Origin: Microvenator marinus
GTDB lineage: Bacteria > Myxococcota_A > Bradymonadia > Bradymonadales > Bradymonadaceae
Direction of reading: 5' to 3'
Assembly: GCF_007993755.1 (NCBI RefSeq)
Contig: NZ_CP042467.1
Span: forward strand, 3,558,001 to 3,622,000
DNA length: 64,000 bases
The notes below the pieces were generated by a model. That model saw nothing but the letters and a program-made list of their open reading frames with translations, made no database searches and was not told the DNA's origin. The position numbers and the translations under genes were made by a program. Shown here in pieces: positions 29,891 through 41,450 of the stretch; position 1 is the first letter of the stretch; each line of letters starts with the position of its first letter.

Positions 29891-32287
29891 ATGCCGTTGC
29901 GCGCGAAGCTGCAGAGTGTACCCGTCGAGCCCCTTGGCGAGCTCCGAAGTTGGCTCTTGGAGCAGCTCTCAGACATTCAGGGTGTGCTAGACCACACGCC
30001 TCTCTTCCGAAAATTTCCGGATGGGGTACCTGCGGATACTTACAGTCTTTGGGTGGACCGTTTCCTGGTCCATTTCTTTCAGAACCCACACCAACCTTGC
30101 TTGTTATGCGGCCAAGACGGCACCACCCACGTATTGAGTCCTTGTGCGCACGTGGTGTGTTCGTTGTGCTTCGATGGCGAAAACTACTCGGGCTGTCCCA
30201 TATGCGGGCAAAAAATCGATTCCGAAACGCCATTCTTGATACCCACGAAACCTCGAAAACGCGGCCATGAAACCGCCCCGCTCAAGGTTCTCCACGTGGG
30301 CTCAGATCTGGCCGCGGAGGCTCGAGCACTCTTTGAGCAGCTCGCTCAGCGAAAGCAGGCGCTATCACCCGATGACCGGCAAGCGCTCGTGATTTTGCTC
30401 GAAGAGTTTGGCCCTGAGGTTCTTGAGTGGATCCCCGAGAAGATTGCGCTGCGCGAGAACATCGCGCAGATCTTCGGCGCGCTCTGTGATTCCCTTGAGT
30501 TGCCTGTTTTTGAGAAAGCGGCCCAGAAACACATGACCACGGCAACAGATGTGTTGAGGTTCATCGCCGCCTACTCGGGGGCTGACCCGTCCCTGCAACC
30601 CGAGGAACGCTTCAGATTGGTGGAGATTAACAACGCTCCAGACGGCTTGATCGCGAAGTTTCTCAAAGTGCTCGGACGCCCCTTGCCTGCTTCTCAAACA
30701 AGGATTCAAGTCACACACAAAGTCTTGCGATTCAGGGTCGCAAAACTTCGACGCCCGCTAAGGCGTGTGTTGTTCAGAATGATGGAGTCACTCGGCGAAG
30801 ACCGTCTGATGGAAGACATGCCACGCTATGCCTCGGCGTGGGTTTGGGTGGGAGAGTTTCTGCATCCCCACGAGTACGCCAAACGCTATCCCGCAGTCGC
30901 CAGGGGCTTCGACGTGGTCCGCAAGAACTCGCCGGCTCCGAAGTCCTTCGCCGCAAGGGTGGAGGCGGCAGCCATCAAGGGAGATATCGCAGAGATGACC
31001 CGACTTCTGGCAAGTCGGCCAGGCGAGTTTGGGCGCCGTTTGGACCATCTCCTGAGACTCGCGGACGCGGGTGAAGAAGACATCGTCTTGAAAGAGCTGG
31101 CGCGTATCGCACCAAGATTTGCCACGCCGCTCTTGGTTCAGCTGAGCGCGCACTTTCGAACTCGGCACACGAGGCTCCCGGTTCGCGTCTATTTTCCTGC
31201 CGGTGCGTCCGTTACGGGTGTCTCTGCTGAGGACAAGCGCACAGTGTTTAGCTCGGAACTCACAGAGCGCCTGGTGGGCATATTCGAGTCCGAGCTATTG
31301 GCACGTTTTGCTGAGCTCAAGGGCCCCAAGGACTGGGTGATCGATGCGAAGATGGCCCAGCACATGGTGCCGTTCAATGAGCGCACGGCGAGCACGGCGA
31401 CGGTGTCATTGAGCCGAGGCTCTAGTCTAGACGTGCCTGAAGGAAAGACCCTGAGACTCTTTTTGCACTGGTGCGAACCCTTCTCCGAAGAGAGAACTGA
31501 CCTCGACCTTTCCGTGGGATTCTACGGTCCAAACTGGGAGTATCTAGACGTCTGTTCCTATTACCAACTACAGGTCCAGAACGTGGCTCGAAGCTCTGGC
31601 GATTTCACGAGCGCACCATTTCCGGACGGGGCAACTGAGTTCGTGGATCTCGATGTGGCTGAGGCCCTAAAGAAAGGGTTTCGGTACGCGGTGATGGTTG
31701 TGAACGCGTACGGTGGGCTTCCTTTTGGTGCCCTTGAGAGAGCGTGGGCTGGCCTGATGCTCCGCGACTCGGACCAGGGCCTTCATTTTGACCCGCGGAC
31801 AGTGGAGCTGAAGTTCGGGCTTCATGGCGGAAACGGCATCTTTGTGCCTTTGGTGGTGGATCTTCAGACCCAGACCATGCACTGGCTGGACCTCTATTCG
31901 GAAGGAAAAATCCAGTTCAACAATGTGCACACATCTAACCAGGCCATTCAGCGAATTTGCCCCGACACCATTGCCTATTTTGGGAGTGGAGCTCGGCCAT
32001 CCATGTTTGAGCTTGGAACGATTCATGCCGCAGCCCGCGCACAATGCGTGTTCATCCGAAGTGGCAAAACATTGCGCAAGTTTGAGCGTGAGCCGTCTGA
32101 ATCCGCGAGTGATTTCCTGAGGCGCCTGCGGAGATTTGAGGGCGGCGAGCCTTGTGATACCACGCCAGACACTCCGGTGGTGGCCCTCCTTGAGCGCGGT
32201 GATCTACCATTGGCCGAAGGCAGCGAGGTCTTCGCGGTCTTTCGTGAGGAGTTCACCCCAACGCTCAAGGCTGCCGACCTACTCTAA
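29891..32287 (+). CDS. MXAN_6230/SCO0854-family RING-finger protein with TerD-like domain
   Basis: 798 residues. Residues about 75-105 make a RING-type zinc finger: CLLC, then 'PCAHVVCSLCF' and 'CPICGQ' (C3HC4-like spacing). A long helical middle follows. Residues about 525-690 carry a TerD-like segment ('LRLFLHWCEPFSEERTDLDL', 'VGFYGPNWEYLDVCSYYQL', 'GFRYAVMVVNAYGG') with the acidic DLDLS/NxY signature of tellurium-resistance/stress proteins. This combination defines a family named after Myxococcus MXAN_6230 and Streptomyces SCO0854. RING fingers in eukaryotes are E3 ligases; whether this protein ligates anything is unknown. Cytosolic. Confidence 0.85.
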   Translation: MPLRAKLQSVPVEPLGELRSWLLEQLSDIQGVLDHTPLFRKFPDGVPADTYSLWVDRFLVHFFQNPHQPCLLCGQDGTTHVLSPCAHVVCSLCFDGENYSGCPICGQKIDSETPFLIPTKPRKRGHETAPLKVLHVGSDLAAEARALFEQLAQRKQALSPDDRQALVILLEEFGPEVLEWIPEKIALRENIAQIFGALCDSLELPVFEKAAQKHMTTATDVLRFIAAYSGADPSLQPEERFRLVEINNAPDGLIAKFLKVLGRPLPASQTRIQVTHKVLRFRVAKLRRPLRRVLFRMMESLGEDRLMEDMPRYASAWVWVGEFLHPHEYAKRYPAVARGFDVVRKNSPAPKSFAARVEAAAIKGDIAEMTRLLASRPGEFGRRLDHLLRLADAGEEDIVLKELARIAPRFATPLLVQLSAHFRTRHTRLPVRVYFPAGASVTGVSAEDKRTVFSSELTERLVGIFESELLARFAELKGPKDWVIDAKMAQHMVPFNERTASTATVSLSRGSSLDVPEGKTLRLFLHWCEPFSEERTDLDLSVGFYGPNWEYLDVCSYYQLQVQNVARSSGDFTSAPFPDGATEFVDLDVAEALKKGFRYAVMVVNAYGGLPFGALERAWAGLMLRDSDQGLHFDPRTVELKFGLHGGNGIFVPLVVDLQTQTMHWLDLYSEGKIQFNNVHTSNQAIQRICPDTIAYFGSGARPSMFELGTIHAAARAQCVFIRSGKTLRKFEREPSESASDFLRRLRRFEGGEPCDTTPDTPVVALLERGDLPLAEGSEVFAVFREEFTPTLKAADLL

Positions 32288-32470
32288 ATTGAGTCGACTT
32301 CTGGGGGTAAAAGTACTTCGCATAGTGGAAGTGGCCGATGCCCAGGCGATACGACGGAATGAAGAGTTGGACCGTCATAGCACTCACTTTTTTTGTTATT
32401 GTTACTTGCCCCTCCATTTTGCGTGCTTAATCTCGATTAATTGAACATGTGTTCAGCAGGCGGTAGGCTA
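32288..32470. other. intergenic region before the CBASS operon
   Basis: 183 bases marking a clear drop in GC. It contains T-rich DNA (CACTTTTTTTGTTATTGTTACTTG) that could end transcription from the RING gene or form part of a promoter. No perfect hairpin or -35/-10 pair stands out. It may be the left edge of an inserted segment. Confidence 0.3.
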
Positions 32471-33832
32471 ATGACGAAGCTCTATGACAAAATTTCGCAA
32501 GCACTCAGAGACAACGAAGGTGTCCTTCGAATCGGTAAACTAAAGGACGCGGTAGACTACCAAAAATCTGTTGATTCATTTCGCCGCGAACTGAAGGCTT
32601 GGACTGAAGCGGATAGTTGCCCAATTCGCTTCGAAGTTAGTGGATACATTGCATATGGCGACACCGATTTTTCGGAATGGTCAAAAAAGCATCGTGGACG
32701 TGGTAAACTCACTGATTACACGGTGTTAAGAGTTTGGTCTAGGGCTGGCGGGCAATGTCAGTTCCCGGGATGTACCAAAGACTTAACCGAGGATCCGCTT
32801 ACGAAGTCGGTGGGAAACTTTGCGCAGATTGCTCACATTGTTGCAGCAAGTCCGGATGGTCCAAGGGGATGCGAGGACCTCTCTCAGCGCTTAGGGGACA
32901 AATTCGAAAACCTAATGCTGCTTTGCTACCCCCATCACCGACTCATTGATACCGATGTCGACCAATATTCGGTTGAGGTTCTCAACGACATGAAACGACG
33001 GCATGAGGACCGACTGGATGCGTTCCTAGCGTCAACTGACGCATATGAGACGCATATGGTTCTGATTTCCGGGGTCATTCGTGGTCAACCGACTCGAATT
33101 GTCCAAGCAGAAGCAGCTCGAGCACTTTCCCCACGTTTTGCCAACAACCGGGTTCTGGAGGTGGATTTGACTAATGCACTTCCAGAAGAAACCGACGATT
33201 TGTATTGGCGAAGTGGGGCGGAGATCCTGAAGAAACGGCTGAGGCAAGCGCTCGAACCGCGACCAAATGAGAGGTTGGATCACCTTTCCGTTTTTGCTCT
33301 GGCGGCAATTCCATTGCTTGTGTTGGCGGGGCGGTTGATTGGAGACAAACGGCGCGCGGAACTCTACCAAAATCAACGTGATTTGAACTCTTGGTCATGG
33401 TTTGAAGAGGTTGAGAGTGCAGACACAACAATCGAACTTGTTAGACCTGAAACCATTGCAAAAGATCGAACCGCTGTTCTAGCGCTTTCGTTCAGCCAAG
33501 ACGTGGACATCGATCAGGTTCGGGCGACAGTGGGTGGCGATATTGACCTCTATGTGATGCGAGCTGCAGAACCCAGTTATAATTGGCTCAAACACAGGGT
33601 TCAATTGGACGCATTTCGCAAAAAATACCTGCAAATTCAGGATGAGCTTGAGCGTAAGTATGGGAAAACTCGCACCCTGCACGTTTTTGCTGCGGTACCT
33701 GCACCCGTCGCCATCGAAATCGGACGAAGTTTACATCCCAAAGTCGCCCCTGAGCTGGTGGTCTACGATTACATCGACGGCCTCTACGTTCGAGGTCTGG
33801 TAATTCCCAAAGATATCAGTTCTGTCCCCTAG
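32471..33832 (+). CDS. cap5: CBASS effector: HNH nuclease fused to SAVED domain (Cap5-like)
   Basis: 453 residues from ATG 32471. An N-terminal ~80-residue part leads to an HNH nuclease: Cys96 and Cys101 (GGQCQFPGC), 'AQIAHIVAASPDGPRG' with His122, then 'ENLMLLCYPHHRLID' with Asn147, Cys152 and His155/156. The C-terminal ~250 residues match a SAVED sensor ('LSVFALAAIPLLVLAGRLIG', 'LALSFSQDVDIDQVRATVGG', 'RTLHVFAAVPAPVAIEIGRS'). Cap5 proteins are activated by a cyclic nucleotide made by the adjacent CD-NTase and degrade DNA, killing or arresting the infected cell. First gene of a four-gene operon; 15 bases to the next. Confidence 0.92.
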   Translation: MTKLYDKISQALRDNEGVLRIGKLKDAVDYQKSVDSFRRELKAWTEADSCPIRFEVSGYIAYGDTDFSEWSKKHRGRGKLTDYTVLRVWSRAGGQCQFPGCTKDLTEDPLTKSVGNFAQIAHIVAASPDGPRGCEDLSQRLGDKFENLMLLCYPHHRLIDTDVDQYSVEVLNDMKRRHEDRLDAFLASTDAYETHMVLISGVIRGQPTRIVQAEAARALSPRFANNRVLEVDLTNALPEETDDLYWRSGAEILKKRLRQALEPRPNERLDHLSVFALAAIPLLVLAGRLIGDKRRAELYQNQRDLNSWSWFEEVESADTTIELVRPETIAKDRTAVLALSFSQDVDIDQVRATVGGDIDLYVMRAAEPSYNWLKHRVQLDAFRKKYLQIQDELERKYGKTRTLHVFAAVPAPVAIEIGRSLHPKVAPELVVYDYIDGLYVRGLVIPKDISSVP

Positions 33833-33847
33833 ATTGCCCGGAGAATC

Positions 33848-34969
33848 ATGTATTTCAACTCAACTACCGCACAACTTGACGATCTCTTGCAGCGGGTGTG
33901 CGAAAACCTACAATTGGCTCCGAGTCTTCACCAGCAGGCTAGCGAAAGGTATGAGTCCATCGCAAAATGGCTGGGTGACGACAAGTGTAAGTTAAACGAA
34001 CTCAATCTGGAAATCTACCCGCAAGGATCATTGGGAATCGGAACCACTGTTCGACCCCAGAAAACACAACAATTCGATCTCGATTTTGTGTGCGAAGTCG
34101 ACCAAGCGGATTGGTTTGCGAACAATCCAATCAATCTTTTGGATGCGGTTGAGAATAGGCTGAAAGAGCATGGAACCTACGCTGAAATGCTGTCGCGGAA
34201 GCCCAGATGTGTGCGATTGCAATACGCCAATGAGTTTCACATGGACATCCTTCCAGGCTTTCGTTCGTCATGCTCGTCAGAGGCGATTTTTGTTCCAGAC
34301 TCGAATCTTGCGGAGTGGGTTTCCAGCAATCCACGGGGTTACAAAAAGTGGTTTAGGTCCCGTAGCCAGATAAGGTTGCATAGGGACGCGAAGATCGAGC
34401 CGTTGGGAGTTTTCGAGTCGGCTGAAAAGAAGAACCCATTGCAGCGAACCGTACAGTTAATAAAGCGTTGGCGAGATATTCACTACAGCGAAGAACTCGA
34501 AATTGCTCCGATTTCCATTGTGCTAACGACACTTGCCGGCCATGGGTATGGCGACCAACAGTCAATCTCACAAGGAGTGATGAGAACCCTTGCGTACATC
34601 AAATCGGAAATCGAAAGAGTCGAAAATGGTGAACGACTGGTCGTCTGCAACCCAACGAATGCAAACGAAGACCTCAGCGAACGATGGGAAACCAACCGTG
34701 ATGCTTATGATGCATTTTGCAGCGGAATCCATGAGTTTCACGATCGGTGGGCACGAGTGCTACGAAAGACACAGACTGAAGCGGTTGAAGAGCTCTCTGA
34801 ACTTTTCGGGGAGAGTGTGACTCATGATTCGCTGAACGAGCAAACAAGGTTGATTGAAGACGCACGAAGCGATGGCAAGCTGAACGTGAACAAGTCCGGC
34901 CTTATCGGTCTTGCAGCTGCGGTAAATGTGCCCGTTCGTAAGAACACTTTTTTCGGCTCAGGAGACTAA
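33848..34969 (+). CDS. CBASS cyclic-oligonucleotide synthase (CD-NTase)
   Basis: 373 residues. Nucleotidyltransferase core: 'IYPQGSLGIGTTVRP' (Gly60-Ser61) followed by 'FDLDFVCEV' (Asp77, Asp79) and the third acid in 'EFHMDILPGF' (Asp133), so the catalytic triad is intact. The helical second half (PLQRTVQLIKRWRDIHY, 'IAPISIVLTTLAGHGY') is of OAS/cGAS-like type. On phage infection such enzymes make a cyclic di- or trinucleotide that activates the neighbouring SAVED effector. The clade and product cannot be decided from sequence alone. It ends 2 bases before the E2-like gene. Confidence 0.92.
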   Translation: MYFNSTTAQLDDLLQRVCENLQLAPSLHQQASERYESIAKWLGDDKCKLNELNLEIYPQGSLGIGTTVRPQKTQQFDLDFVCEVDQADWFANNPINLLDAVENRLKEHGTYAEMLSRKPRCVRLQYANEFHMDILPGFRSSCSSEAIFVPDSNLAEWVSSNPRGYKKWFRSRSQIRLHRDAKIEPLGVFESAEKKNPLQRTVQLIKRWRDIHYSEELEIAPISIVLTTLAGHGYGDQQSISQGVMRTLAYIKSEIERVENGERLVVCNPTNANEDLSERWETNRDAYDAFCSGIHEFHDRWARVLRKTQTEAVEELSELFGESVTHDSLNEQTRLIEDARSDGKLNVNKSGLIGLAAAVNVPVRKNTFFGSGD

Positions 34970-34971
34970 GC

Positions 34972-35481
34972 GTGCCCAAGATCTTTGTTCCAACCCTTAG
35001 CCAAGGCCAACAAAGAATGAGGATGAAGGCGTTATTTCCTTCGTTCAAGTTTGAGCGCGGAGAACGCGGGATTGGTATATGGAAAGGCTCGCTGCAACCA
35101 ACCGTATGGGGCGACAAATACCGAGTTCAAATTTCCTACTCCCCGAAATCCAGCCCATCTGTCGAGGTACTTTCACCGAAGCTAAGGTCTCGACCTGATG
35201 GGGAGAGACCGCCACATCTTTATTCGGGCGAGCGACTGTGCCTTTACTTGCCGAACTCAGGCGAATGGACGCGTCAGATGTTTTTAGCCGACACGATAGT
35301 CCCATGGACCAGCTTGTGGCTCTATTACTACGAAATTTGGTACGTAACTGGAAGTTGGCTGGGAGGCGGTAAACATCCAGTTGCGAAAAGCGAAAAGAAA
35401 GCCCGGCGGGATACCATACGGAAAGAGGGTCGCCGGAAGATCGACCGGGGCAATGGAGAAACACCGAACCATGGAGGATAA
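34972..35481 (+). CDS. E2-like protein of short type II CBASS
   Basis: 169 residues from GTG 34972. The signature 'YSGERLCLYLPNSGEWTRQM' then 'LADTIVPWTSLWLYYYEIWY' and 'TGSWLGGGKHP' is that of the stand-alone bacterial E2 family in short type II CBASS; Cys90 is the expected catalytic cysteine. These E2 proteins prime the CD-NTase through conjugation of its C-terminus. The CD-NTase upstream ends in Gly-Ser-Gly-Asp, roughly compatible with a Gly-type tail. No E1 or JAB peptidase gene is near. Its stop is immediately followed by the ATG of the next gene. Confidence 0.88.
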   Translation: MPKIFVPTLSQGQQRMRMKALFPSFKFERGERGIGIWKGSLQPTVWGDKYRVQISYSPKSSPSVEVLSPKLRSRPDGERPPHLYSGERLCLYLPNSGEWTRQMFLADTIVPWTSLWLYYYEIWYVTGSWLGGGKHPVAKSEKKARRDTIRKEGRRKIDRGNGETPNHGG

Positions 35482-36261
35482 ATGCTATCAGATGAAGCAA
35501 TACTGCAAGAGGCTTTAGATACGATTTTGGTGATGATCAACCCATCATCTGGAATGGGGCATCCCAATGACAAGAAGAAGGTCGTATGGACGTTTAAGAT
35601 TCTGAAGAAGCATAATATCCCCATTGACAGCAACGTGGTTCGCCAAACCATGCTCGCAGCTGGGATGATGGTCGATAAAGCGAATGAAATTAAGGAGGCT
35701 GCTGAGCGCGTCTCAAACGGTGGCCGGTTTCAGGGTATTGGTACAACGTCTCCATTGCGCCACGACATTTTCCAGCGGTGGAAAGACCGGGCCCTTGAAA
35801 GGACTAAATTTGGTGAAGTCGATAGTGAAGAAGCCGCAGCCGAACGCGAATCCAAGGAGTTCTTTTTTACGGCGGAGGGCACCTCATCGAGGTCACTCGC
35901 CGTATCAAAGGCCTTGGAGCTAGCTTCGCAGTACGGCTCCCTGGCGATGATGATACCTACGAAGTCAAACCTTAGTAACTACGGCGACATCTTTGGAGAC
36001 ACCGCGTTGAAGGCCCTAGGGAAGAACGGAAAGGCAAGAGTGATAGTCGATAGCAGGTCCTTCATTGTTCATCTTGTCCCAGCAACTCAATACACTTCCT
36101 TTAATACACCGAGTGACGTGATGCTGATTTTCGACTGTCCGTTCGATGCAGTCGAAAAGGTGCTGTACAACGACATGAGCGTGAAGAGCATCGTCTATGT
36201 GCCCTGGACCGCTGATGAGTTTGCTTCCGCTCAGAAGACACCCAAGAGCAAACAACTCTGA
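35482..36261 (+). CDS. unknown fourth gene of the CBASS operon
   Basis: 259 residues, starting on the base after the E2 stop and with a GGAGG ribosome site, so clearly part of the operon. No family recognised. The N-terminal half is helical (KKVVWTFKILKKHNIPIDSN); the C-terminal half looks alpha/beta, with predicted strands 'KARVIVDSRSFIVHLVPATQ', 'DVMLIFDCPFDAVEKVL' and 'VKSIVYVPWTADEF'. No JAB (HxH...D), E1, peptidase or nuclease motif is seen. It ends 25 bases from the convergent reverse transcriptase gene. Possible roles are a fourth CBASS accessory or an independent hitch-hiker. Confidence 0.72.
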   Translation: MLSDEAILQEALDTILVMINPSSGMGHPNDKKKVVWTFKILKKHNIPIDSNVVRQTMLAAGMMVDKANEIKEAAERVSNGGRFQGIGTTSPLRHDIFQRWKDRALERTKFGEVDSEEAAAERESKEFFFTAEGTSSRSLAVSKALELASQYGSLAMMIPTKSNLSNYGDIFGDTALKALGKNGKARVIVDSRSFIVHLVPATQYTSFNTPSDVMLIFDCPFDAVEKVLYNDMSVKSIVYVPWTADEFASAQKTPKSKQL

Positions 36262-36286: not shown

Positions 36287-39154
36287 CTACTTCGGTATCG
36301 TCCTACGGCACTGCGCCATGTCGTAGCCTTCCGGAAGAGGTTTGTACTGGTCTTTCGGATCCGGCCAACGCTTTATTCTTGACTGGAATGCGCGCATCTC
36401 CTGTACGGGCAGCGTGGCAACGACCACAAAGTCATTCTCGCCGCCTTGGATTCGACAGATATCTCGTTCATGTGGTTTCTTAGCGGGTATGCGGATTCGG
36501 CTGTCCCCGTATTCCCTATTGTTCACCAAAATGATGGCAGAGTGGACATCAAGTGCGGCGGACTCAACCAACGTGTTGAAAGTTCCCACGTCCTTATTCC
36601 AAGATAAGACGAACAACCCGTCAACCTTGCCGCGAAACTTGGCACGATTGTGGATGTCCTGCAGTTCGGAACACACCAGTACGGCAAAACAGAACCCTTC
36701 GTGCCTGATCAGGTTTGGCCGTTCTAGTTCGGTTTTCCAGTTCAATCCGAAAAGCCTGAGTAAGTCGGCCTCTTCTTCCGGCGCCGGCAGCCTTTTGTGT
36801 TGGTAGAATTCCCGACCGAAATCATAGTCCACACAATTCTCTCGGACATAAAGACCAGCACAGCTCACCACGGTCTTTTTGTCACTGTCCACCTCATACT
36901 CAATGCCTGCAATCAAATTGATTCCGCTGTCTTGCAGGCTTTCACCGAAGTGTTGAAAGAGTCGCTTTGATAGCGAAAGTTCAGGCATCACAAGATAGTC
37001 AGGCTTTGGCTTACATGCTCGGGCGAGCTCGACGATCTGGGAGACTTGGTCATAGCGCAGCCCTGATGTCTCTTCGCCACCAGCGTTCTTGAGCCAATAG
37101 TCATAGGGAACAAGGAAGTTTGTTACTGCAATCCGCGGGTTGTCGGAGAGCTTCGCCTCTTTCGACTCATCTCCCTTCAAGTTTGTTTCCAAAAGAAAAG
37201 GCTTTGGCTTTGTCCACGTCCCACGGAAATAGTTAACCAATTCACAAACATGTTTTGGGTCGGCGTTTGCCACCAACAAGAGGTCTCTAGCCTTCAATGG
37301 CCGAGTTGGGAACCAGAAGGGCAGCTTGGAATCGTTGCAAAATTCAACGGGCCAGGTGATATCAGCAATCCCGCAGACGGCGTCTTCTTTGGGCTGTTTC
37401 GGCCGCGGGAGCTCTTGGCGAATCTCAAGGTACGACTTGAAACCGAAGTCGGACAGCAACAACGCCTCCCAGTCTGACTTGGGGTTCGAGGAGGTCACAT
37501 CCACCACCTTTTTGAGGGCACTGAATTGTAGCAATTTCTCAAGTTTGCTTTCATCCGCGACGGCAGAGAGAATTGCAATTCCCATTCTCCGCTCAAAGTG
37601 TTGGATATCAACTTCCGCAACTCCTTTGAATTCTAGCCCGTTTACCACTTTGCGGACACCAATGAGCCCTACTTTGCGAACGTCTTTCGGCCCAAAAAAG
37701 CAGTCGCAAACCTTCTGAACGAGTAACTCCGCCTCTGAGAAATCGCCACAATTGATACTGACTTTCAGCACACGCAAGAACTTGTCGAAAGTCTCTAAGA
37801 TCTTCTTCGGAGTTAAAACAAATTGTTGGGTGAATTCGTAGAACTTTTTACGGTTTTTCTCCCAGTCTTGCGACTGGAGCATGCTGTTTAGCTTTTCCAT
37901 TCGGCCACTCTCAATAGACCAAGCAAACTTTGTGATGGTAAGTTGGTCGGCTTCCCTCAAATGAATGGTGGACCCATTTGGGCCCTGCGCTCTAAGTGCC
38001 TGGCGACTTGCGGTGTCCGACGGGTCACGCGGCGGAAGTTTGTTTCTTTCGCTCGCGATCTCATTGAGTTCGTTGTCCAACCCCTCCAGCACAGCTCTAC
38101 CGGTTGCGCCTTTCAGTTCCATCACGCGCGTCTTGTTTTTAGCGAGGTGAATCGTGGTATCGCCAAGCCATGGGAAATCGGCGCTTGTGACTTCCGAATT
38201 GGTGAGCCATTTTCCCCCAATCTCTTGCCAGAACTTTGGCTCACTGCCATCCACTGGCACTTCCAGACAGTTGAGTACAATGAAGAGATCGTCCACATAC
38301 CGTCCGTAGTGCGCTACACAAGACTCTTCCATGGCCTTGTCAAGTGGGGCGAGTATGATGTTTGACAGAACCCGCGATGGCGTGAAGTTGAGCGGCAGCC
38401 CCAGCGGAAAAATGGAGCCGTTCCTTTTGTTCCAACGATGGACTATCTCCACAATAAGTTTGGTTAGGGCCAACTCTTCGTGGTTGAATGTCACCCCGAA
38501 CTCCGCTTGAAAAGTCGGATCGAGCACAAAGCCCGCATCGATTTTGGGATAAAAACTCTTCATGTCGGAGGTGATCACGTAAGCGGGCTTTTCGGCATCC
38601 AGAAGTCTTTCAATGGCCTTCTTGCCGTCATTTCGCCACCGTTCCCATTGGGTGTGGAACATCTGAAAACTGCCGCCAGTGTGGTGCAAGTGGTAGTTTT
38701 TGTTTTTTAGGCGTCTAAGCCGATTTCCGTAGCAAGACTTCGAAAGCTCCGCATCAAGTTTGTCACCCACGGTGTTGATCCAGTGAGCACCGAGGATATG
38801 GATTTCGACTGAGAACTCACCGAATGTCCGAAATTCTGCGATGGAGTCGGGAGGAGCGTCTTGATTCTCATCAGTCATTAGAATCATCTTCGGCGGTGCC
38901 GAACTCCTGTCGCCCACTGGTCTGTCATCTCTCAAACACTTTGAAATCAGCTCGACGCCACCAACCCCTTTCTTAACGAGTGCACCAGCCCTTTCTCGAT
39001 CCCATGTTCCAGTCAGTTGCCGGAGATTCTTTACGAGCTGGTGCTCATACCTTGCGAAGGCCAATGCGAGTGTTTCGGACTTTGAGTGGAACGCGTCGGA
39101 TTTGGCTTTGCGGTATGCAAAGAAGACATCTTCGGTGGTTAGTTTGAAGCTCAT
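36287..39154 (-). CDS. drt1: defence reverse transcriptase fused to nitrilase (DRT1/UG1-like)
   Basis: 955 residues from the ATG at about 39154, which has a GGAGGA ribosome site; the open frame extends upstream without sense. The reverse transcriptase part (about 130-450) has motif A 'YVITSDMKSFYPKID' (about 192-206), 'LGLPLNFTPSRVLSNIILAP' and the YVDD box in 'HYGRYVDDLFIVL' (about 286-289). The C-terminal ~240 residues are nitrilase-like with a full E-K-C triad: Glu in 'YLVMPELSLS' (about 725), Lys in 'FYQHKRLPAPEE' (about 787) and Cys in 'FAVLVCSEL' (about 828). An RT-nitrilase fusion defines type 1 DRT (unknown-group 1) phage-defence enzymes. Convergent with CBASS, divergent from the ATPase gene. 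Confidence 0.9.
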   Translation of the reverse strand: MSFKLTTEDVFFAYRKAKSDAFHSKSETLALAFARYEHQLVKNLRQLTGTWDRERAGALVKKGVGGVELISKCLRDDRPVGDRSSAPPKMILMTDENQDAPPDSIAEFRTFGEFSVEIHILGAHWINTVGDKLDAELSKSCYGNRLRRLKNKNYHLHHTGGSFQMFHTQWERWRNDGKKAIERLLDAEKPAYVITSDMKSFYPKIDAGFVLDPTFQAEFGVTFNHEELALTKLIVEIVHRWNKRNGSIFPLGLPLNFTPSRVLSNIILAPLDKAMEESCVAHYGRYVDDLFIVLNCLEVPVDGSEPKFWQEIGGKWLTNSEVTSADFPWLGDTTIHLAKNKTRVMELKGATGRAVLEGLDNELNEIASERNKLPPRDPSDTASRQALRAQGPNGSTIHLREADQLTITKFAWSIESGRMEKLNSMLQSQDWEKNRKKFYEFTQQFVLTPKKILETFDKFLRVLKVSINCGDFSEAELLVQKVCDCFFGPKDVRKVGLIGVRKVVNGLEFKGVAEVDIQHFERRMGIAILSAVADESKLEKLLQFSALKKVVDVTSSNPKSDWEALLLSDFGFKSYLEIRQELPRPKQPKEDAVCGIADITWPVEFCNDSKLPFWFPTRPLKARDLLLVANADPKHVCELVNYFRGTWTKPKPFLLETNLKGDESKEAKLSDNPRIAVTNFLVPYDYWLKNAGGEETSGLRYDQVSQIVELARACKPKPDYLVMPELSLSKRLFQHFGESLQDSGINLIAGIEYEVDSDKKTVVSCAGLYVRENCVDYDFGREFYQHKRLPAPEEEADLLRLFGLNWKTELERPNLIRHEGFCFAVLVCSELQDIHNRAKFRGKVDGLFVLSWNKDVGTFNTLVESAALDVHSAIILVNNREYGDSRIRIPAKKPHERDICRIQGGENDFVVVATLPVQEMRAFQSRIKRWPDPKDQYKPLPEGYDMAQCRRTIPK

Positions 39155-39380
39155 GCTTCCTCCTGATTTTCTGTGAGAAGCCGAGGTTAATCCAAAGTTG
39201 GGTTCTTGGAAAAAAAACGACTTTGGAGCTTGGCGACCGGCAGGGTGAAATCTAGAAGTCCTTTCGTGATGGGAGAAGCATCCAGCGAACTGTTGATCTG
39301 CAAATCGAGCTTGCCACGCAATGGAAACGTCGAGAATATGTAGACCCAAAACCAAGCTTCTTCGGACAAGGGTGGAACTC

Positions 39381-41450
39381 ATGAAAATATCAAGTCTTAC
39401 AGTGAAGAACTTCAAGGCCATAGAATATCTTCATCTTGGTGATCTCGGAGATATGGTTGTTATTGCAGGCCCCAACGGGTGCGGAAAGTCGACTGTCTTT
39501 GAGGCAATAAAACTTCTGAAGTCAACCTACGGCCATTACACATCAAACAACGAACTGCAGCAGTTTTTTGGTGAGCATCAGATTCAGTTGAAACGGAACC
39601 CGAGGTTTGAGCTGCTCTTGCGGGATCGAACTCAACCGATGGAATTGGAGTGGGTGCTCGTTCTAAATGACGAAGAGAAGAGTTATCTGAGCGCCAACGC
39701 GAGAGCATGGGTTAAGAGGCTTCTCATAAGGGATGAGGTTAGCGCAGATGGCATTGCTGTATCGCCTCCTCAGATGAGTCTTGCGGAACAAGAAAGGTTA
39801 GAAAGAAAAAACTCCCCCGAAATTGAGAGGCTAACCGAAGAGCTAAAGTCACTCTTGAAGGAGCCGAGTTTGGTGGGAGGAGTTTGGGTCACAAGCGATC
39901 AACAGGTGAAGTTCCTGCCAAACCTGGCGATTCAAATGATTTGCTCCACCTACGACCCTCCTAGCTTGGGCGTGTTCGATTTTCACGGCCCCCAGCGCAC
40001 CTACAGTCGCGAAAATCTGGATAGCCTGCGCCTTAGTTCCGCTAATCATGAGCTGTCCAGCAGTGCGCTATATAACACCTCCGCCAAGTACCAGAATATC
40101 AAGACGCAGCTTGCAAACTCGTATTTGGTGGAGTTGATTGGCGAAAAGGCTGGAAAAGGAGACTCGCTCGGACTCCCAAATCTGACCAAGACGATTCAGT
40201 CCCTGTTTAAGCAGTTTTTCCCCTCAAAAGAGTTTGTGGGAGTTGTCCCTACTCCGGAGGGAAAACTTGAGTTTCCGGTACGTATGAGTGATGGAAGTTG
40301 CCATGATATCAATGAGTTGAGTTCGGGGGAGAAGGAGATAGTGTTCGGATATCTTCGTTTGCGAAATTCTGAGATTCAGAACTCAGTGTTAATGTTCGAC
40401 GAACCTGAACTTCATTTGAATCCGAAGTTGATTGAAGGACTACCCGAGTTTTATTCAGAGAACTTTGGTCGGGCGTTTGGCAATCAGATTTGGATGGTGA
40501 CACACAGTGATGCCCTGATACGTGGATCACTTAGGCAGCCTAGTTTTTCGGTTTTCCACCTCATGGAAGCTAGTGTCGGTGAAGGAATCAACCAAGCACA
40601 CAGGGTGTTGGCTGAGGAGGATTCGGTAGACATCCTCATGATGGAGCTCATTGGGGATGCTGCTGTTTATCGTCCCCGCAACCCAGTGGTACTGATTGAG
40701 GGCAAAGAATCGGGCTCGGACGTGCAGCTAATCGGAGATCTCTTTCCAGAATATCTTGCGAAAGCGAACTTCGTGGCAGCAGGAGACAAGCAGAGCGTAA
40801 GAAGGATTCATCAAGCGCTCTTGAAGGTCGAAGATCTCGTGAGAGTGAAAGTGTTCTCGGTTGTGGACTTGGACACTGAACCGTATGAAGATGACTCGGT
40901 CAGCCAATTGTGTTGGGATGTCTATCATATCGAAAACTACTTGCTGGAGGACGAGATAATCTACGAAGTCCTATGTTCCCTAAACTTCAAACACGAGCTT
41001 TCGCTCGCTGACATGGACTCCTATCTCAAGAATTGCGCTGCCAAGACGCAACACAATTTAGTTCGACATCGAATCTGGAAGCATCTCAATTCCTTTCTCA
41101 AGCCGTTACATGTCGAGAATCCAGATTTGAATGACTGCGATTTTGCCCAAAAAATGCATCAACAATTAACCTCCGACCTGAACGATTTAATGGCAAAATT
41201 GGACGATGATTTGAGTATTGAGTCCATTGCCAATACTCGGTCACGGGTTGAGAGCGAAGTGTTAAAGGAACTGGATAGTGGCAAATGGCGACAATCCTTC
41301 AAGGGCAGAGACATTTTAAAATTGGTCGCAAAGGATATCCAGATACAATATCCGCATTTACGGTCGTTGATTATCAGCAGGATGAGGGAACGAGACTTTA
41401 AGCCGATTGGGATGAAGCGAATCTTGGATGCGTGTTTGGAAATTGATTAG
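39381..41450 (+). CDS. AAA ATPase fused to a DUF4435/TOPRIM-like domain (PARIS/OLD-like)
   Basis: 689 residues from ATG 39381, behind AAGGGTGG. SMC/OLD-type ATPase: 'VKNFKAIEYLHLGDLG', Walker A GPNGCGKST (30-38), signature LSSGEKE (313-319), Walker B SVLMFDEPELHL (335-346), and His375 in MVTHSD. It continues into a TOPRIM-like domain: 'PVVLIEGKESGSD' (Glu440), 'VFSVVDLDTE' (Asp496, Asp498) and 'YHIENYLLED', which is the DUF4435 pattern. In PARIS the ATPase AriA and the DUF4435 nuclease AriB are usually separate genes; here they form one chain. OLD nucleases have a similar layout, so the subfamily is not certain. Cytosolic defence effector by family and context. Confidence 0.8.
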   Translation: MKISSLTVKNFKAIEYLHLGDLGDMVVIAGPNGCGKSTVFEAIKLLKSTYGHYTSNNELQQFFGEHQIQLKRNPRFELLLRDRTQPMELEWVLVLNDEEKSYLSANARAWVKRLLIRDEVSADGIAVSPPQMSLAEQERLERKNSPEIERLTEELKSLLKEPSLVGGVWVTSDQQVKFLPNLAIQMICSTYDPPSLGVFDFHGPQRTYSRENLDSLRLSSANHELSSSALYNTSAKYQNIKTQLANSYLVELIGEKAGKGDSLGLPNLTKTIQSLFKQFFPSKEFVGVVPTPEGKLEFPVRMSDGSCHDINELSSGEKEIVFGYLRLRNSEIQNSVLMFDEPELHLNPKLIEGLPEFYSENFGRAFGNQIWMVTHSDALIRGSLRQPSFSVFHLMEASVGEGINQAHRVLAEEDSVDILMMELIGDAAVYRPRNPVVLIEGKESGSDVQLIGDLFPEYLAKANFVAAGDKQSVRRIHQALLKVEDLVRVKVFSVVDLDTEPYEDDSVSQLCWDVYHIENYLLEDEIIYEVLCSLNFKHELSLADMDSYLKNCAAKTQHNLVRHRIWKHLNSFLKPLHVENPDLNDCDFAQKMHQQLTSDLNDLMAKLDDDLSIESIANTRSRVESEVLKELDSGKWRQSFKGRDILKLVAKDIQIQYPHLRSLIISRMRERDFKPIGMKRILDACLEID

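What the first reader, a model, noticed from the sequence alone, without database searches (positions are those of the whole stretch)
35482..36261. Unknown fourth gene in a short type II CBASS operon
The usual short type II set is effector, CD-NTase and E2. A 259-aa protein follows the E2 stop without a single intervening base. It has no JAB, E1 or nuclease motif, so it would be a new CBASS component, for instance a regulator of the E2 reaction, a nucleotide-binding brake or a second effector.
Basis: partly seen in the sequence, partly recalled or inferred. Interest (0 to 1): 0.68.

Follow-up and report, generated by a model that had tools for sequence, protein, structure and literature searches.

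The report
Mobile immune-operon accessory behind CBASS E2
The fourth gene after the E2 of this bacterial anti-phage (CBASS) operon is real, but it belongs to an undescribed two-domain family that travels with many different anti-phage systems, so it is probably a general add-on of defence operons and not a CBASS-specific part.

Summary
A 259-aa ORF (35482-36261) starts on the base after the E2 stop codon, with GGAGG at 35473-35477 inside the E2 end. It is the last gene of an HNH-SAVED / CD-NTase / E2 operon.

No library names the protein; Pfam gives only a sub-threshold DUF1889 hit. It has two domains: an N-terminal DUF1889 (YoaC-like) domain and a C-terminal alpha/beta domain with a RecA-like predicted fold and no Walker A motif. 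A profile built without this protein finds both domains, in the reverse of the usual order. Fifteen independent loci (bacteria and haloarchaea) have the order alpha/beta then DUF1889; ours is the only swapped one found.

Only one of those 15 lies behind a CBASS, a type III. A lone DUF1889 gene follows a type II CBASS in Collimonas. Others lie beside Avs3, AbiE/HepT, a GapS1-like gene, type I-C CRISPR, PD-Lambda-4 and TIR; a lone alpha/beta domain follows PD-T7-4. Copies 88% identical have different neighbours. None of 60 listed plasmids with a related E2 is among the 21 carrying the family.

Best reading: a mobile accessory or regulator of immune operons; mechanism inferred.

The parts
32441..33832 (+). 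HNH-SAVED CBASS effector; the true start may be ATG 32472
   Evidence: PADLOC PDLC00739 3e-98; Pfam SAVED 1.9e-37
33848..34969 (+). CD-NTase (oligonucleotide cyclase), C-terminus ...NTFFGSGD
   Evidence: PADLOC PDLC00815 1.7e-108; SMODS 3.6e-20; C-terminus compared with relatives
34972..35481 (+). Stand-alone E2 of short type II CBASS (169 aa)
   Evidence: PADLOC PDLC00876 6.7e-51; LCLYLP motif shared with relatives
35473..35477 (+). GGAGG Shine-Dalgarno-like site inside the E2 end, 4 bases before the gene-4 ATG
   Evidence: sequence
35482..36261 (+). Gene 4, the finding: 259-aa two-domain protein, DUF1889 then alpha/beta domain (swapped order)
35494..35793 (+). DUF1889 (YoaC-like) helical domain, residues about 5-104, with the loop NPSSGMGHPND
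   Evidence: 35% identity to a haloarchaeal protein, 1e-9; independent profile about 50 bits; Pfam DUF1889 alone sub-threshold, E 0.1
35854..36240 (+). Domain B, residues about 125-253: RecA-like alpha/beta fold without Walker A
   Evidence: independent profile 27 bits, 1.2e-4 at Z=1e6; AlphaFold pLDDT 81.5; Z 10.3, rmsd 3.6 over 135 residues to a phage terminase ATPase domain; no Walker A

Best explanation
Gene 4 is a genuine, translationally coupled last gene of this short type II CBASS operon. It is a domain-swapped member of a rare, horizontally moving family that joins a Walker-less RecA-like alpha/beta domain (B) to a DUF1889 (YoaC-like) helical domain. The family is added to immune and toxin operons of many kinds. 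Shown here: the gene, its two domains, the swap, and the mixed contexts. Inferred: it is a non-catalytic protein- or nucleic-acid-binding accessory that restrains or licenses the self-toxic system it is co-expressed with (here the HNH-SAVED nuclease or the cyclase). It would work through a function shared by many systems and not through the E2 reaction. The conserved DUF1889 loop (N...HP.D) and the conserved lysine in domain B are the likely binding sites.
For: Zero-base junction with a GGAGG site in the E2 end. Profile from 15 relatives without ours: two hits in swapped order (46.3 and 25.2 bits), and 75.5 bits as a single hit after computational permutation; control over 1994 ORFs is clean. 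Same predicted domain-B topology for a canonical Vibrio member and ours; no Walker A at the expected place in any member. Family genes near: type III CBASS with HORMA, TRIP13, TIR effector and exonuclease, type II CBASS, Avs3b, AbiEii and HepT-like, type I-C cas1/cas2 and cas4/cas7/cas8c, GapS1-like, PD-Lambda-4, PD-T7-4, TIR. Precedent: CapK/CapS are shared by CBASS, Bub and other immune operons (PMC13373217).
Against: No functional data. The regulatory role rests on genomic company and fold only. Fold matches are middling (Z 8-10), where unrelated alpha/beta folds also score. No count of how often random genes lie beside defence genes was made, so enrichment is not tested statistically. About six of the 15 two-domain loci have no recognised defence neighbour. 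Known shared controllers (CapW, CapH/P, CapK/S) sit at the promoter end, whereas this gene sits at the 3' end.
Confidence: 0.42

Rival explanations
1. Independent passenger: a mobile defence-island gene (for example an antitoxin-like protein or a solo defence gene) that landed behind the E2 and shares its transcript, with no functional link to CBASS.
For: Copies 88% identical have different neighbours (L007 against L015). The family is absent from 281 other genomes sampled in the phylum. Many copies lie on plasmids next to transposases. Several neighbours are HEPN- or toxin-type genes (RNRLAH, RNMLIH, RNTTSH motifs; DUF4145; HepT-like; Fic).
Against: The zero-base, SD-coupled junction suggests selection for co-translation with the E2. 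Three separate CBASS linkages exist (short II, II, III). In this locus no HEPN or other toxin partner lies beside gene 4.
Confidence: 0.33
2. Specific CBASS component acting on the E2 reaction or the conjugated cyclase, standing in for the missing Cap3 protease.
For: Directly behind the E2 of a system without JAB/Cap3; co-translation geometry.
Against: None of the 60 listed plasmids (of 81) with a related E2 is among the 21 carrying the family. In 8 of 8 sampled loci an effector gene (SAVED, HNH or phospholipase) comes next after the E2 or one small gene later, and no family ORF is present. The family occurs with E2-less systems. No protease motif was recognised.
Confidence: 0.1
3. A second effector: in related loci the slot after the E2 is taken by the effector, and here gene 4 sits in that slot while HNH-SAVED stands upstream.
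For: Gene order CD-NTase, E2, effector in the plasmid relatives. The conserved N...HP.D loop could be an active site.
Against: No SAVED, CARF, STING or other ligand-binding sensor and no known toxic domain. A complete effector is already present. Relatives lie in systems that carry their own effectors.
Confidence: 0.12

Closest known systems
DUF1889 / YoaC-like family (Pfam PF08986; PDB 2ES9, 2JN8)
   Same: N-terminal domain of gene 4; the canonical relative superposes on 2ES9 over 73 residues at 1.9 A, Z 9.1; N...HP.D loop shared
   Different: The Pfam family includes single-domain proteins of unknown function; gene 4 is fused to domain B and alone scores only 13 bits against Pfam's 26.9
Short type II CBASS (effector, CD-NTase, E2)
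   Same: Genes 1-3 of the operon
   Different: An extra gene behind the E2, not seen in the 8 plasmid relatives read here
CapK/CapS, CapW, CapH/CapP controllers of immune operons (PMC13373217)
   Same: Accessory genes shared by CBASS and unrelated immune systems
   Different: Those are transcription regulators at the promoter end; gene 4 has no recognised DNA-binding or kinase domain and lies at the 3' end; resemblance of role only
RecA2 domains of helicases, HelD C-terminal domain, terminase ATPases
   Same: Predicted fold of domain B (Z 9-10)
   Different: No Walker A motif; 6-12% identity in the best rows; no sequence link

Membership tests
DUF1889 (PF08986) | Score above the curated Pfam cut-off | tested here: not met
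   13 bits against 26.9
DUF1889 (PF08986) | Homology to proteins that do pass the cut-off | tested here: met
   1e-9 by tblastn to haloarchaeal proteins that score 36.4 bits against PF08986; independent profile about 50 bits
Two-domain B + DUF1889 family (defined here) | Both domains in one protein | tested here: met
   Two profile hits, 46.3 and 25.2 bits
Two-domain B + DUF1889 family (defined here) | Order B then DUF1889 | tested here: not met
   Reversed in gene 4; canonical in the 15 other loci
CBASS component (Cap protein) | Recurrent, specific association with CBASS operons | tested here: not met
   1 of 15 two-domain loci plus one lone DUF1889 locus; 0 of 60 listed E2 plasmids among the family's 21
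CBASS component (Cap protein) | Required for, or modulating, phage defence | not testable with these tools
   needs deletion and phage challenge
Cap3 / JAB isopeptidase | JAB/MPN domain | tested here: not met
   No hit in Pfam, NCBIfam or PADLOC, whereas the Collimonas JAB is found at 2.2e-52
P-loop (RecA-type) ATPase | Walker A motif [AG]xxxxGK[ST] | tested here: not met
   Absent in gene 4 and all members except one chance match in the inter-domain linker of L016
P-loop (RecA-type) ATPase | RecA-like fold | tested here: inconclusive
   Z 9-10, rmsd 3-4 A
Short type II CBASS (whole operon) | Effector + CD-NTase + stand-alone E2, no E1 or JAB | tested here: met

The most novel reading that the evidence does not exclude
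An undescribed accessory module (Walker-less RecA-like domain plus DUF1889) is shared by mechanistically unrelated immune systems (CBASS short II, II and III, Avs3, AbiE, PD-T7-4, PD-Lambda-4, GapS1-like, CRISPR I-C) and acts as a common brake or licensing factor for them. In this genome it has been domain-swapped and translationally locked to a CBASS E2.
Probability: 0.3. Interest if true: 0.72.

Novelty: new variant of a known kind. Interest (0 to 1): 0.48.

Why it matters
If the family is a shared accessory of many immune systems, one protein would give access to a control layer common to CBASS, Avs, Abi and CRISPR operons, and DUF1889 (structure solved years ago, no known function) would gain a testable role. 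If it is only a passenger, it still warns against reading every gene coupled to a CBASS operon as a CBASS component.

Tried and rejected
Non-coding or chance ORF: rejected by homology of both halves. Phage origin: no match in 50,697 phage records and no confirmed relative in four scans of viral contigs. Inherited lineage gene: absent from 281 other genomes of the phylum sampled and from 234 by profile. Argonaute-associated TIR-PNTD hit (PADLOC 0.022) and rimK hit (0.11): weak; the PADLOC hit is not shared by relatives. Avs3b homology of the Vibrio gene upstream of the family gene: none (E 0.012 over 15 residues). The RING-finger gene 29891-32287 upstream as an E3 partner: it has homologues in relatives in whose genomes the E2 search gave no hit, so not pursued. 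The wide alignment of fragments mis-placed domain B, so it was folded separately. No DUF1889 functional literature was found except a boric-acid screen in E. coli.

Full report
WHAT IS THERE. The ORF 35482-36261 (+) is present exactly as described. The E2 ORF ends with TAA at 35479-35481 and gene 4 begins with ATG at 35482, with GGAGG at 35473-35477 inside the last E2 codons. The operon is HNH-SAVED effector (32441-33832), CD-NTase (33848-34969), E2 (34972-35481), gene 4; gaps are 15, 2 and 0 bases. Twenty-five bases further on, a reverse-transcriptase gene of the UG5-nitrilase type (PADLOC 1.4e-214) ends on the other strand, followed by an AriAB/PARIS-type gene (1e-169), so this is a defence island.

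DOMAINS. Library scans name nothing, but tblastn finds residues 4-104 in haloarchaeal plasmid proteins annotated DUF1889 (35% identity, 1e-9). Aligning one of these (Haloglomus, 255 aa) by eye showed that its N-terminal half resembles the C-terminal half of gene 4: the two domains occur in reversed order. Searches with the haloarchaeal and bacterial copies then found the same two-domain protein in Bradyrhizobium, Klebsiella, Deefgea, Thalassobaculum, Caballeronia, Acinetobacter and Mycolicibacterium plasmids, in Vibrio, Nitrobacter, Mannheimia and two Verrucomicrobia genomes, and in one more genome of a sample of 398 from the Collimonas phylum. All 15 have the order B then DUF1889. A profile built from these 15 without gene 4 hits gene 4 twice, DUF1889 at residues 5-77 (46.3 bits) and B at residues 136-249 (25.2 bits), and gives a single 75.5-bit hit when the halves are exchanged in the computer. 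Separate A and B profiles searched against 1994 ORFs hit only family members and gene 4. The swap is therefore solid; gene 4 is the only swapped member seen.

STRUCTURE. AlphaFold models of a canonical member (Vibrio, pLDDT 86.6) and of the gene-4 C-terminal domain (pLDDT 81.5) give the same alpha/beta order. Both resemble RecA-like domains (HelD C-terminal domain Z 9.9, rmsd 3.2 over 122 residues; terminase ATPase Z 10.3, rmsd 3.6 over 135 residues). These are middling scores that many alpha/beta folds reach, and there is no Walker A motif, so ATPase activity is not expected. The DUF1889 half of the Vibrio model matches the solved structure 2ES9 (Z 9.1, rmsd 1.9 over 73 residues, 29% identity; profile 9.4e-8). 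An N...HP.D loop is kept in nearly all members, single-domain ones included.

COMPANY. Two-domain members lie next to: a type III CBASS in Bradyrhizobium (HORMA, TRIP13, TIR effector, exonuclease; its CD-NTase is split into two ORFs); Avs3a/b in Klebsiella (the family gene there has two internal stops); AbiEii and an MNT/HepT-like pair in another Bradyrhizobium; a GapS1-like gene in Caballeronia (2.3e-19, below that model's cut-off); the gap between cas1 and cas4 of a type I-C CRISPR locus in Mannheimia; a divergent PD-Lambda-4 gene in Thalassobaculum; a TIR gene in G327; a DUF4062 gene in a Verrucomicrobium. Single domains lie behind a full type II CBASS in Collimonas (DUF1889) and behind PD-T7-4 (B). 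Others (haloarchaea, Deefgea, Nitrobacter, Acinetobacter, Mycolicibacterium, one Verrucomicrobium) have no recognised defence neighbour, and two YoaC-like lone DUF1889 genes lie among housekeeping genes. Copies 88% identical (Bradyrhizobium L007, Nitrobacter L015) and 65-66% identical (L040) have three different neighbourhoods. No statistical control for this enrichment was made.

IS IT A CBASS PART? E2 relatives are found on 81 plasmids; none of the 60 listed is among the 21 plasmids carrying the family. In eight such E2 loci read in detail an effector gene (SAVED, HNH or phospholipase) comes next after the E2, or one small gene later, and no ORF matches either domain profile. In 281 further genomes of the phylum neither gene 4 nor, with two weak exceptions, this E2 type was found. 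So the family is not a CBASS-specific component, and in particular it accompanies systems without any E2.

MECHANISM. Shown: co-translation geometry, two domains, no recognised catalytic motif, company of self-toxic systems. Inferred: a binding protein that restrains or licenses the system it is co-expressed with. The closest functional precedent is the set of Cap controllers that are shared by CBASS, Bub and other immune operons, though these sit at the promoter end and are transcription factors or kinases. In type II CBASS the cyclase is conjugated by its C-terminus and the E2-only short type has been proposed to work by cyclase-cyclase conjugation (PMC11153139); nothing found here ties gene 4 to that reaction. 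The recurrent HEPN-type neighbours (RNRLAH, RNMLIH and RNTTSH motifs; DUF4145; HepT-like) leave an antitoxin-like role open. The passenger reading is nearly as likely.

VERDICT. Observation confirmed. Interpretation as a new CBASS component not supported in that form. The gene is a domain-swapped member of an undescribed, mobile family of immune-operon accessories, of moderate interest.

Noticed in passing
window 29891-32287: A 798-aa protein with a Prok-RING_4 RING finger (1.2e-19) ends about 150 bases upstream of the E2-CBASS operon on the same strand; it is the only Prok-RING_4 match in this genome. Its other parts have homologues in relatives.
   Followed up: partly
window 36287-39421: UG5-type reverse transcriptase fused to nitrilase (DRT), convergent with gene 4.
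   Followed up: no
window 39321-41450: 709-aa protein matching the fused AriAB (PARIS) model over its full length (1e-169), so a third defence system in the island.
   Followed up: no
L017 5545-6225: Mannheimia haemolytica carries a family member between cas1 and cas4 of a type I-C CRISPR locus, on the opposite strand.
   Followed up: partly
L012 5995-6782: Collimonas: lone DUF1889 gene about 200 bases behind the JAB of a type II CBASS, followed by a gene with a HEPN-like RNMLIH motif.
   Followed up: partly
L009 6637-7143; L012 6306-6782; L040 7556-7969; L033 6360-6998: HEPN-type genes (RN....H motif, DUF4145 or HepT-like) recur beside members of the family; possible toxin-antitoxin-like pairing.
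   Followed up: partly
window 34969: The CD-NTase ends ...NTFFGSGD; most relatives share an FFG or FYG motif followed by one to three different residues, so the last residue is often not Gly or Ala as described for type II CBASS.
   Followed up: no
L006 4992-5672: In Klebsiella variicola pKPN692_2 the family gene behind avs3b has two in-frame stops and is annotated as two hypothetical proteins.
   Followed up: no
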